25,408 bases of DNA from a virus, in the IMG/VR virus record IMGVR_UViG_3300043548_000247, positions 1-25,408 of that record; one strand, given 5' to 3'. The position numbers were made by a program, and so were the translations under genes. This document shows positions 9,646-21,201 of this stretch, piece by piece. The notes beneath the pieces were generated by a model. It searched no databases. It worked only from the letters and a program-made list of their open reading frames with translations, and was not told the DNA's origin. The first letter of the stretch is position 1, and each line of letters opens with the position of its first letter.

Positions 9646-9842
9646 TTGTCACCTCCGTATGTTTCGTTAAAGTAATCGTTAAATGCTTCGTGTTTGAAAC
9701 CAATCATTGGATGAATTAATCGACTTTCCAAAAAAGCATCTTCAATCTGCTCCTTCTCCATTGCTAATGCTTTGTCTCGCATTGTTCCGCCGTCTATTCT
9801 AAGTTGGTCTGTTAACCACTCTACTGCTGTTTGCTTTTTCAT
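9642..9842 (-). CDS. MKKQTAVEWL-family small phage protein, copy 2 (66 aa)
   Basis: This is the first gene after the promoter at 9860-9890. Its ends match the copy at 8501-8716: MKKQTAVEWL at the start and YFNETYGGDK at the end, while the middle differs (DGGTMRDKALAMEKEQIEDA). Identical DNA stretches at both ends (e.g. taaccactctactgctgttt and tttgtcacctccgtatgttt) show duplication and could allow recombination that deletes the genes between them. It is probably helical; function unknown. Confidence 0.75.
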   Translation of the reverse strand: MKKQTAVEWLTDQLRIDGGTMRDKALAMEKEQIEDAFLESRLIHPMIGFKHEAFNDYFNETYGGDK

Positions 9843-9859: not shown

Positions 9860-9890
9860 CAAAGATAACTTATGTGTGTTGTTTATGCAA
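9860..9890 (-). promoter_or_regulatory. Bacteroidota-type promoter for the 9842-to-6755 operon
   Basis: On the minus strand TTG (9890-9888), a 20-base spacer and TATCTTTG (9867-9860) match the TTTG/TAnnTTTG promoter pattern of Bacteroidota. The ATG at 9842 is 17 bases past the -7 box, giving a leader of about 10 nt that is A/C-rich (AAAACAACAACGAA) and has no Shine-Dalgarno. Confidence 0.7.
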
Positions 9891-9898
9891 TTATTTCT

Positions 9899-9931
9899 TT
9901 TGACTTCCGTGTTGCGGTCGCCATACATTTG
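9899..9931 (+). promoter_or_regulatory. Promoter-like element for the plus-strand small RNA
   Basis: TTTG (9899-9902), a 21-base spacer and TACATTTG (9924-9931) fit the TTTG/TAnnTTTG pattern. Predicted transcription begins near 9937, only a few bases before the first hairpin of the candidate small RNA. It diverges from the minus-strand promoter at 9860-9890. Confidence 0.55.
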
Positions 9932-9937
9932 TTGCGT

Positions 9938-10039
9938 TCTCACATTACAGTGTCTGGCTGGCAGTGTAATGTGGGAGATAAGAATTAAAATTCTTATTAT
10001 GAATTGCCCTCGGTCCAGCCAGACGAGGGCTTTTTTTTT
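9938..10039 (+). ncRNA. Candidate small RNA with complementary hairpin loops (about 100 nt)
   Basis: Three hairpins lie in a row after the promoter. H1 pairs CACATTACA (9941-9949) with TGTAATGTG (9965-9973). H2 pairs ATAAGAAT (9978-9985) with ATTCTTAT (9990-9997) around TAAA. H3 pairs GCCCTCG (10006-10012) with CGAGGGC (10024-10030) and is followed by nine T. The H1 loop holds TCTGGCTGG (9953-9961) and the H3 loop holds CCAGCCAGA (10015-10023), exact reverse complements. This allows an intramolecular or intermolecular kissing interaction, or alternative folding that breaks the terminator. There is no plus-strand gene downstream, so a stand-alone regulatory RNA is likelier than an attenuator. 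No known family is recognised. Confidence 0.7.
10006..10039 (+). terminator. Strong rho-independent terminator ending the small RNA
   Basis: A perfect 7-bp GC-rich stem (GCCCTCG/CGAGGGC) with an 11-base loop is followed by nine consecutive T. It points rightwards, although no plus-strand protein gene lies directly upstream, which supports a short non-coding transcript. Confidence 0.85.
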
Positions 10040-10237
10040 ACCCCAACCCCACCACCCGAATCAGCCCTGTCGGTGCAAGAGGCAAACTTCATACGCGAGT
10101 ATGTTGGATCGGGTAGCTGCCCCTTTGTGGGGCGGGGTAGTTTGTTTTTCACGGGGGGAGGCTTTTTCTTTTCTTCTCTTTAGGTTTCTTCTTGACTTGT
10201 TTCTTTTCTCTTCTTTTCTTTTGAGTGAACCAAGGGT
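10040..10237. other. Gene-free spacer with small hairpins and a pyrimidine-rich tract
   Basis: No gene is supported here. It holds CATAC-GCGA-GTATG (10091-10104, a GNRA-type tetraloop), a GCCCC/GGGGC hairpin near 10119-10132, and a long C/T-dominated stretch (about 10164-10222) that is purine-rich on the minus strand. The minus-strand gene ending at 10238 reads into it; no clear U-tailed terminator was identified. Confidence 0.5.
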
Positions 10238-10672
10238 TTAACCTATCTCAAGTTGCTCATTCGGGTCTGGGATATAAATATCCAACGTCTCGGCAGCAAA
10301 CTGCTTGACGTGTTCCATGTACTCAATAAATTCCTCCGTTGCCAGGTCTGACGTTTTGCGTGGGATTCTCATGACTTCACCGGTGGTCGGGTCGGTCAGT
10401 TCAGAGTAAAGGAATCTTCCCTTGAGGAACTCATGCGCGAGGTCGCGGTCAACGTCATGGCCAAGCTCCCTGAGCCTTTCCACTATCATCGACACGACTA
10501 CGCCCCAATAGTATGCGTTCTGCACGTCGGAGCGTACACGTTTCTTCATCTTGACTTCGATGGTCACAGCCAAGTCCTTTTCACGGGACATGGCTCTGAC
10601 TTCCTCATCAAAGAGGGGGCGATTGTAGATTCGCAATGCCCCCTGTGGCGTGATTACTCCGTTGTGCTTCAT
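10238..10672 (-). CDS. NinB/Orf-like recombination mediator (144 aa)
   Basis: I chose ATG 10672, which overlaps the preceding TGA as ATGA. The core reads VTIEVKMKKRVRSDVQNAYYWGVVVSMI, matching the R-S-x-x-Q-N-x-x-Y/L-W signature of NinB-type proteins. It is followed by a HEFLKGRF helix and a C-terminal ATEEFIEYMEHVKQFAAETL segment ending IYIPDPNE, as in Bacteroidota phage members. NinB (lambda Orf) binds single-stranded DNA and assists strand exchange. Length is near the family norm. The nearby PD-(D/E)XK gene suggests a recombination module. Alternative: an unrelated small DNA-binding protein. Confidence 0.7.
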   Translation of the reverse strand: MKHNGVITPQGALRIYNRPLFDEEVRAMSREKDLAVTIEVKMKKRVRSDVQNAYYWGVVVSMIVERLRELGHDVDRDLAHEFLKGRFLYSELTDPTTGEVMRIPRKTSDLATEEFIEYMEHVKQFAAETLDIYIPDPNEQLEIG

Positions 10673-18140: not shown

Positions 18141-18172
18141 TTTGGATATGGGGCCAACATACCCTATATTTG
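18141..18172 (+). promoter_or_regulatory. Strong Bacteroidota-type promoter without a nearby gene
   Basis: TTTG (18141-18144), a 20-base spacer and TATATTTG (18165-18172) form a full consensus promoter pointing right. The hyphenated palindrome GGGAAATTCCC (18173-18183) covers the predicted start point and may be an operator. The first supported plus-strand gene is over 800 bases away and has its own promoter. Confidence 0.7.
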
Positions 18173-18567
18173 GGGAAATTCCCACCTAACTTATTGGTTC
18201 TCATAGCAGTTAACACTGCAAACCTAGCCCCGAGCGCGGGCAGTCCCACACAAGGCCCTCCCATAGATCCCTATAGAGACACACAAAGCACCGGCACAAA
18301 CTAGCCAATAGGCATACAAAGCACTCATGCGCGCCCGCACATTAGGCCTTCCCGAGCTAGGTTGCCCTAACCAAAAAGAGCGGGCCTGCTAGAACCCCTG
18401 TAAACACGCGGAAATTGCTTTAAATCGACTTTCTCGCCCTAGGTGGTATCTACATACATCCGAGCCCGAGATAATGCCTCTATGCCCCCTCAAAATGCTA
18501 TTTGGAATGGTTCTAAATAAGGCAGAATCTGGCCCAAGCAGTTGATTCTCAGCATGTTAGGCCTCGA

Positions 18568-18626
18568 ATTAACAGGGCATTAACTAAACACGCGGGCCAC
18601 AGGGCAGACGGCACAGGCCTGTTAAT
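18568..18626. repeat. 9-bp inverted repeat ATTAACAGG/CCTGTTAAT
   Basis: ATTAACAGG (18568-18576) and CCTGTTAAT (18618-18626) are perfect reverse complements enclosing 41 GC-rich bases. In RNA this would close a long stem-loop domain; in DNA it could be a cruciform or protein site. Confidence 0.55.
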
Positions 18627-18843
18627 GATAAGTTAAATACAGGGGAGCGGGCTGCATTTCGTATAGATAACCGCATGCATAAACGTAGCACTACAAGTTA
18701 TTCTTGCGGTATGTGGTTGGTTATCAGTATGTTAGTCTACTTTGTCCACCGATGGGATACCAAGAATACCCTATGTTATAGCTGTACATAATACTTTACT
18801 TTCTCCCGAGCCTAGGCAAGCAAGCGAGCGAGGCGGGTGCCGA

Positions 18844-18859
18844 TGTTCCACGTGGAACG
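18844..18859. promoter_or_regulatory. parS-like ParB-binding palindrome
   Basis: TGTTCCACGTGGAACG contains the perfect 14-bp palindrome GTTCCACGTGGAAC. It fits the chromosomal parS pattern TGTTnCACGTGnAACA at all but the last base. No parA or parB gene is in the window, so a host ParB would have to be the binder. Confidence 0.6.
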
Positions 18860-18950
18860 TATTCGACCCCACCCCGTTTGCCATATCGACTTCGGGAAAT
18901 TTTTTCTCGCGGGGGGGACTAGGGGGGGACCCCAACCCGGGATAGTTTAC

Positions 18951-18980
18951 GAAATGTCTAAAAATGTCTAGGAATGTCTA
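18951..18980. repeat. Three tandem 10-bp iterons (AATGTCTA core)
   Basis: GAAATGTCTA, AAAATGTCTA and GGAATGTCTA follow each other without spacer, one per helical turn, and end 3 bases before the -33 box of the promoter at 18984. This is the layout of a cooperative activator or repressor site, or of replication iterons. Confidence 0.75.
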
Positions 18981-18983
18981 AAA

Positions 18984-19014
18984 TTTGGATAATTGACGAC
19001 CTTGCATATATTTG
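18984..19014 (+). promoter_or_regulatory. Consensus promoter of the 19-20.3 kb operon
   Basis: TTTG (18984-18987), a 19-base spacer and TATATTTG (19007-19014) match the Bacteroidota consensus. The ATG at 19027 lies 13 bases after the -7 box, so the leader is only about 6-7 nt. The iterons lie directly upstream. Confidence 0.8.
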
Positions 19015-19026
19015 TAAAAAAAAGCC

Positions 19027-19185
19027 ATGAGATACGCATCGCAGGACTATACGGCCAACATGTTTGGCAGATACACCCCAGCAAGACAGATGGTAAAGAA
19101 CCGCTATAGAATGGCCCAGGAGGAGATGGAGGCCCGTATGGCTAAGGAGGCCAAGGGCGATCACGATTGTGGCTGTAAAAAATAA
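19027..19185 (+). CDS. Small basic protein with CGC end (52 aa)
   Basis: MRYASQDYTANMFGRYTPAR is followed by a Met/Arg/Glu-rich helix (MVKNRYRMAQEEMEARMAKE) and ends DHDCGCKK. The M-x-YASQDY-x-x-N start is shared with the next gene, so the two have related N-termini, perhaps a common recognition tag. This is the first gene after a strong promoter with a nearly leaderless mRNA. Function unknown. Confidence 0.7.
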   Translation: MRYASQDYTANMFGRYTPARQMVKNRYRMAQEEMEARMAKEAKGDHDCGCKK

Positions 19186-21025: not shown

Positions 21026-21033
21026 TTGTTTTG

Positions 21034-21125
21034 TAGTCAGGACAGGACTCGAACCTGTAAGCAGGGTTTCTCACCCATGGTGTGTACATTGCCATTCACC
21101 GCGTCTACCATTCCGCCACCTGACT
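21034..21125 (-). tRNA. Class II tRNA-like gene, unusual anticodon arm (copy 1)
   Basis: Acceptor AGTCAGG/CCTGACT plus A, Leu-like D arm (TGGCGGAATGGTAGACGC) and T arm ACAGG-TTCGAGT-CCTGT are normal. The variable arm is long (GGGT-GAGAA-ACCC). The anticodon arm is not standard: no clean 5-bp stem with a 7-nt loop is found. The best fits are GTG/CAC with a mismatch, or ATGG/CCAT around an 11-nt loop containing TGTACA. CCA is not encoded. The identity is therefore undefined; it may be a degenerate tRNA-Leu. Confidence 0.6.
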
Positions 21126-21131
21126 ATGTTG

Positions 21132-21201
21132 TGGAGAGACCAGGAGTCGAACCTAACTCTTTGGGATTTCACCCCAACGCATACCACTATGCTATCACTC
21201 C
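21132..21201 (-). tRNA. tRNA-Phe (GAA)
   Basis: Acceptor GGAGTGA/TCTCTCC (one T-T mismatch), D arm GCA-TAGTGGTA-TGC, anticodon arm TTGGG-GTGAAAT-CCCAA with anticodon GAA after T33, a 4-nt variable loop and T arm TTAGG-TTCGACT-CCTGG. All parts have standard spacing and the gene does not encode CCA. Confidence 0.85.

What the first reader, a model, noticed from the sequence alone, without database searches (positions are those of the whole stretch)
9899..10039. Small RNA with kissing-complementary loops between divergent promoters
A promoter-like element is followed by three perfect hairpins. The 15-nt loop of the first contains TCTGGCTGG, the exact reverse complement of CCAGCCAGA in the loop of the terminator hairpin. 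A chance 9-of-9 match between the only two large loops is unlikely. The pairing could dimerise the RNA, lock it into a closed form, or control termination. No plus-strand gene follows.
Basis: partly seen in the sequence, partly recalled or inferred. Interest (0 to 1): 0.8.

Follow-up and report, generated by a model that had tools for sequence, protein, structure and literature searches.

The report
Phage RNA with self-complementary kissing loops
A group of uncultured phages of Bacteroidota-type bacteria carries an undescribed ~105-nucleotide RNA whose first hairpin loop always matches its terminator's loop letter for letter, even as both sequences change, and a sister RNA built the same way sits directly in front of their replication gene, which suggests an RNA that recognises copies of itself to control replication.

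Summary
Window 9898-10039 holds a Bacteroidetes-type promoter (TTTTGACTT-N17-TACATTTG), hairpins H1 and H2, and a terminator hairpin H3 with T9; the H1 loop TCTGGCTGG and H3 loop CCAGCCAGA are exact complements. Nothing in Rfam matches.

New here: these phages also carry a second RNA of the same layout. In 61 of 62 loci it directly precedes a replication-initiator-like gene (ATG 3-12 nt after the T-run). Its loops come in three matched versions, and both loops switch together while the 44 nt between them stay almost unchanged.

The best reading is a new family of self-recognising leader/terminator RNAs: the terminated RNA can pair with another copy of itself, most simply for dosage-dependent control of replication genes. 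The structure is shown computationally; the trans, dosage-sensing step is inferred. A pairing within one molecule that only stabilises the terminator is the main rival. The window's copy has no downstream gene, so its own target is unknown.

The parts
9898..9931 (+). Bacteroidetes-type promoter TTTTGACTT-N17-TACATTTG
   Evidence: Sequence; both boxes kept in aligned relatives while the spacer between them varies
9932..10039 (+). sRNA1: small RNA of about 105 nt (true 5' end unmapped, about 9936-9938)
   Evidence: Covariance model R1 hits 9932-10038 with 111 bits, E 4e-23 (the window is in the model); fold z -4.9
9938..9976 (+). Hairpin H1, 12-bp stem plus conserved G.G mismatch (9950/9964) and a 2-bp top
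   Evidence: 8 of 14 pairs have compensatory changes, 97.7% of cells paired
9953..9961 (+). Kissing loop 1, TCTGGCTGG
   Evidence: Complementary to loop 3 in all 35 loci, 12 versions
9978..9997 (+). Hairpin H2, AU-rich, sequence variable but foldable in relatives
   Evidence: Folds; not scored separately for covariation
10006..10030 (+). Terminator hairpin H3
   Evidence: All cells paired, 2 of 7 pairs compensated
10015..10023 (+). Kissing loop 3, CCAGCCAGA
   Evidence: Covaries with loop 1; 5 of 6 scored pairs changed on both sides, 98.2% of cells paired
10031..10039 (+). T9 run of the intrinsic terminator
   Evidence: Sequence; T-run present in all relatives aligned
9860..9890 (-). Divergent promoter-like element TTG-N20-TATCTTTG for the minus-strand small genes
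   Evidence: Consensus match only

Best explanation
The element is a stand-alone small RNA (sRNA1) of a new family of self-complementary, terminator-ending phage RNAs. SHOWN by comparison: three hairpins, an intrinsic terminator, and a conserved loop-loop helix between H1 and the terminator loop; and a second RNA of the same layout (sRNA2) that directly precedes the replication-initiator-like gene of these phages, with its terminator 3-12 nt before the start codon. INFERRED from that spacing: no second promoter fits between terminator and start codon, so the gene must be expressed by read-through and sRNA2 acts as an attenuator; the terminated product is itself a small RNA. INFERRED, less sure: because the two loops are complementary, a terminated copy can pair with the loops of a nascent leader (loop 1 to loop 3 and loop 3 to loop 1), favouring the terminator and blocking the start site, so that replication-gene expression falls as phage copies rise. 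sRNA1 would be a paralogue that kept the self-recognising part without a gene; its output is not known.
For: Twelve loop-pair versions all matched with double-sided changes and controls. Self pairs -9 to -18 kcal/mol, non-self pairs on average -2 to -6, although near-identical versions cross-pair almost as well. sRNA2 in all 11 near-complete genomes scanned and in 61 of 62 initiator loci, ATG 3-12 nt after the T-run. sRNA2 loops switch as matched pairs (GAGCAAC/GTTGCTC, GAACCAC/GTGGTTC; 42 of 42 distinct RNAs matched, 0 mixed) while the 44 nt between them differ by 1-3 bases. The gene has an HTH_36 domain and resembles phage replication initiators, and a BT4734-like primase/helicase gene follows it. 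Model R1, built on sRNA1, finds two sRNA2 copies at E about 1e-5. A rough helix calculation puts an intramolecular kiss in sRNA2 out of reach of its linker unless H2 melts or the complex is bent by more than 90 degrees.
Against: No transcript, termination or binding data. The window's own copy has no downstream plus-strand gene, so attenuation cannot be its job. The geometric estimate ignores flexibility and for sRNA1 allows a kiss within one molecule. No alternative antiterminator structure was identified. Closely related loop versions are not fully orthogonal. Several near-complete relatives lack sRNA1. No integrase, ParA or ParB was found in nine genomes, so lysogenic immunity or plasmid-style copy control is not supported by gene content.
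Confidence: 0.42

Rival explanations
1. The two loops pair only within one molecule. The kiss is a tertiary contact that stabilises the terminator hairpin and 3' end, or changes how fast it forms, and thus sets a fixed level of read-through or RNA lifetime without sensing other copies.
For: Covariation alone cannot tell pairing in cis from pairing in trans; the sRNA1 linker can span the stack if extended; sRNA1 has no gene to regulate in cis.
Against: For sRNA2 the linker looks too short with H2 folded. Plain terminators work without such a contact. Matched switching of loop versions would need no such variety.
Confidence: 0.33
2. The RNA is a structural homodimer or ring built by head-to-tail kissing, as in phi29 packaging RNA or the GOLLD/ROOL cages, with a role in the particle or as a scaffold.
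For: Two distinct complementary loops on one small phage RNA is the arrangement of phi29 pRNA (PMC7357161); a closed antiparallel dimer would place H1 and H3 of one monomer side by side (inference).
Against: The paralogue leads a replication gene, not a packaging gene, and its terminator abuts the start codon. No three-way junction, no Rfam match. sRNA1 is absent from some near-complete relatives.
Confidence: 0.1
3. sRNA1 is a conventional antisense small RNA that uses its loops to bind a third RNA, from phage or host.
For: Promoter, terminator and exposed loops are typical of trans-acting small RNAs.
Against: Both loops change together in 12 versions, which self-pairing explains and a fixed target does not; TCTGGCTGG and CCAGCCAGA occur nowhere else in the nearly identical 70-kb relative.
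Confidence: 0.06

Closest known systems
Phage P4 CI RNA (immunity RNA from the leader of the replication operon)
   Same: A small RNA made from the leader of phage replication genes, complementary to sequences in that same leader, that causes premature termination (as summarised in PMC4825925).
   Different: CI RNA is processed out of a longer transcript; here the RNA has its own promoter and intrinsic terminator, and complementarity lies in two hairpin loops, one of them the terminator's. No integrase found here.
Gifsy-1 IsrK RNA
   Same: One promoter gives a short terminated RNA and a read-through mRNA, and the short form acts in trans on the long form (PMC4825925).
   Different: IsrK activates translation of an antiterminator cascade through linear pairing; no kissing loops with the terminator and no replication gene.
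Plasmid pT181 antisense-controlled attenuator
   Same: Leader attenuator in front of a replication gene, recognition begins by kissing hairpins, specificity lies in the loops (PMC4878617).
   Different: There the repressor is a separate antisense transcript and an antiterminator helix is known; here the sense RNA carries both complementary loops and no antiterminator was found.
phi29 packaging RNA and the ROOL/GOLLD RNAs
   Same: Phage RNAs that assemble through complementary loops, with covariation across relatives (PMC7357161, PMC12286853).
   Different: Different size and fold; those carry no terminator loop in the kiss and do not lead a replication gene.

Membership tests
Any Rfam 15 family | Covariance-model match at the gathering score | tested here: not met
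   No match for the window element or for relatives of sRNA1 and sRNA2; permissive scan gave only weak hits near E = 1
Kissing-loop RNA (structural class) | Two hairpin loops with conserved, covarying complementarity | tested here: met
   12 matched versions; 5 of 6 pairs with double changes, 0/500 shuffles reach the covariation score; sRNA2 likewise
Kissing-loop RNA (structural class) | Physical loop-loop contact in RNA | not testable with these tools
   Needs probing or native gels
Leader attenuator of a replication gene (pT181-like), for sRNA2 | Intrinsic terminator between promoter and replication gene | tested here: met
   61 of 62 loci, ATG 3-12 nt after the T-run
Leader attenuator of a replication gene (pT181-like), for sRNA2 | Alternative antiterminator structure | tested here: inconclusive
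   None seen in minimum-energy folds; no systematic search made
Leader attenuator of a replication gene (pT181-like), for sRNA1 in the window | Gene downstream on the same strand | tested here: not met
   No plus-strand gene after the terminator in the window; noncoding type A block or an apparent minus-strand gene in relatives
P4-type CI RNA | Leader-derived RNA that terminates replication transcripts in trans | not testable with these tools
   Needs expression data
phi29 pRNA | Three-way junction and packaging role | tested here: not met
   Predicted fold is three hairpins in a row; packaging role not tested

The most novel reading that the evidence does not exclude
A class of phage RNA in which one transcript is both antisense regulator and target: complementary loops let terminated copies of a leader recognise nascent copies of the same leader, giving loop-encoded, dosage-dependent control of replication, with sRNA1 as a gene-free paralogue that has its own diversifying specificity.
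Probability: 0.3. Interest if true: 0.88.

Novelty: new variant of a known kind. Interest (0 to 1): 0.7.

Why it matters
If the trans step holds, a replicon can count its own copies with a single sense RNA, without a separate antisense gene or repressor protein. The natural series of matched loop versions would also be a ready set of kissing pairs for testing specificity and for building RNA regulators. Even if only the cis reading holds, this is a new covariation-supported RNA family in phages of Bacteroidota, where few phage RNAs are described, and it shows that an intrinsic terminator's loop can be part of a conserved tertiary contact.

Tried and rejected
Searching IMG/VR for the bare motif CTGGCTGG-N35-60-CCAGCCAG gave 120+ mostly unrelated stretches, so the motif alone is not specific. 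DNA similarity searches: only a 21-nt match in Lak phages at E 0.7, taken as chance; none in plasmids. Two scans of GTDB genomes found no relatives of the initiator or NinB. A plus-strand ORF of about 82 aa just after the terminator in type B loci first looked like a downstream gene; conservation continues past its stop and the opposite strand reads as a gene, so it was dropped (the minus-strand reading was by eye). Leaders of other Bacteroidota phage initiator genes (L296, L306, L391) show 6-8 nt loop matches, but shuffled leaders reach 6 or more at a similar rate, so they are leads only. Cultured Bacteroidota phages: no hits in five; two AT-rich hits in B124-14 with weak hairpins were set aside. 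Lysogenic immunity and plasmid-like maintenance: no integrase, ParA or ParB in nine genomes.

Full report
What is in the window. The plus strand at 9898-10039 carries a Bacteroidetes-type promoter, three hairpins and a T9 run. H1 is a 12-bp stem topped by a G.G mismatch and two pairs, so that its apical loop is just TCTGGCTGG. H3 is a terminator hairpin with loop GT-CCAGCCAGA. The two 9-mers are exact complements and occur once each in 25 kb. The fold is far more stable than shuffles. Flanking genes lie on the minus strand: NinB ends at 10238 and a small gene starts at 9842, with a promoter-like element facing left. Rfam has no match.

Covariation. NinB served as an anchor for 53 related loci in IMG/VR. 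Thirty-three of them carry the RNA by similarity, and a more divergent one, L168, was found by eye. In these 35 sequences (window included; L122 is nearly identical to the window, and 28 RNAs are distinct) there are 12 loop-pair versions, for example TCTGGTAC/GTACCAGA, TCTGACGG/CCGTCAGA, TTGGAGAG/CTCTCCAA and TGTAGAGAG/CTCTCTACA; all keep 7-9 bp. Re-pairing the versions at random never reached the observed total in 20,000 trials. On a 19-sequence alignment, six loop-loop pairs were scored: 98.2% of cells paired, five pairs with changes on both sides; whole-structure covariation beats all 500 shuffles and all register slides. The promoter boxes are kept while their spacer changes.

A paralogue in front of replication genes. 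Model R1 found a weak second hit in two of the same phages. A purpose-written scanner for 'terminator loop complementary to an upstream hairpin loop' returned only this RNA and the window's RNA over 1.13 Mb of relatives, with one hit in shuffled sequence. It is present in all 11 near-complete genomes scanned. Starting from its downstream protein, 62 loci were collected (L234-L295); 61 have the RNA, and the truncated L258 lacks the region. The start codon lies 3-12 nt after the T-run, mostly 5 nt. The protein has three alternative N-terminal parts and one shared C-terminal part, an HTH_36 domain in two forms, and similarity to phage replication initiators such as TP901-1 Rep; a BT4734-like primase/helicase gene follows. 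Since no promoter fits between terminator and start codon, read-through is required: an inference, but a strong one.

Loop versions switch as pairs. sRNA2 has GAGCAAC/GTTGCTC, GAACCAC/GTGGTTC and, in L289-L294, GTAAGGC/GCCTTAC. All 42 distinct sRNA2 sequences are matched and none is mixed; in several pairs of relatives both loops differ while the 44 nt between them differ by only 1-3 bases. Pair counts agree (row L289 is misaligned there). Self pairs are stronger than non-self pairs on average, but near-identical versions such as TCTGGCTGG and TCTGGCCGG still cross-pair, so strict orthogonality is not claimed.

Cis or trans. Covariation does not distinguish them. A rough A-form calculation gives a coaxial stack of about 87 A for sRNA1 against a fully extended linker of about 90 A, and about 93 A against 57 A for sRNA2. 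This leans towards trans pairing for sRNA2 but assumes rigid helices and a folded H2. Precedents exist for the ingredients: P4 CI RNA and IsrK (PMC4825925), the pT181 attenuator with kissing hairpins (PMC4878617), phi29 pRNA (PMC7357161) and the GOLLD/ROOL cages (PMC12286853). I found no described RNA whose own terminator loop is the conserved complement of its first loop, but the paper library is partial and seven searches were made.

Limits. Everything here is sequence comparison. No host is known; the promoter type, the NinB relatives in Bacteroides phages and the primase relatives in Flavobacterium, Cellulophaga and Maribacter phages point to Bacteroidota. Six cultured phages of that group, scanned wholly or in part, gave no convincing case, so the family is so far confined to one uncultured clade. 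The role of sRNA1, which has no downstream gene and is missing from some near-complete relatives, remains open.

Noticed in passing
window 10040-10225: A noncoding block (type A) just after the sRNA1 terminator is about 92-100% identical in many relatives, with hairpin-forming sequence followed by a long pyrimidine-rich tract; other relatives have a different sequence (type B) at the same junction, with the same sRNA1 version.
   Followed up: partly
window 18161-19168: About 1 kb without convincing genes, with promoter-like TATATTTG motifs at both ends, partly conserved in relatives.
   Followed up: partly
window 18844-18859: Palindrome TGTTCCACGTGGAACG resembling the bacterial parS site (from memory), conserved as TGTTCCACGTGGAACA in three relative genomes; no ParA or ParB family hit in nine genomes.
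   Followed up: partly
window 21033-21201 (minus strand): Two tRNA genes, tRNA-Phe and one with a predicted four-base anticodon (gcaa), in ARAGORN output.
   Followed up: no
sRNA1 promoter spacer, window 9907-9923 and relatives: The spacer between the promoter boxes often forms a different inverted repeat in different phages (for example CTACATTTTTGTAG, GGAGTGTGACCTCC); sRNA2 has CAACCTCGCGTGGTTG: possible operators.
   Followed up: no
L235:3001-3690 and relatives: The replication-initiator gene exchanges its N-terminal part among three types while its C-terminal part and the leader RNA stay.
   Followed up: partly
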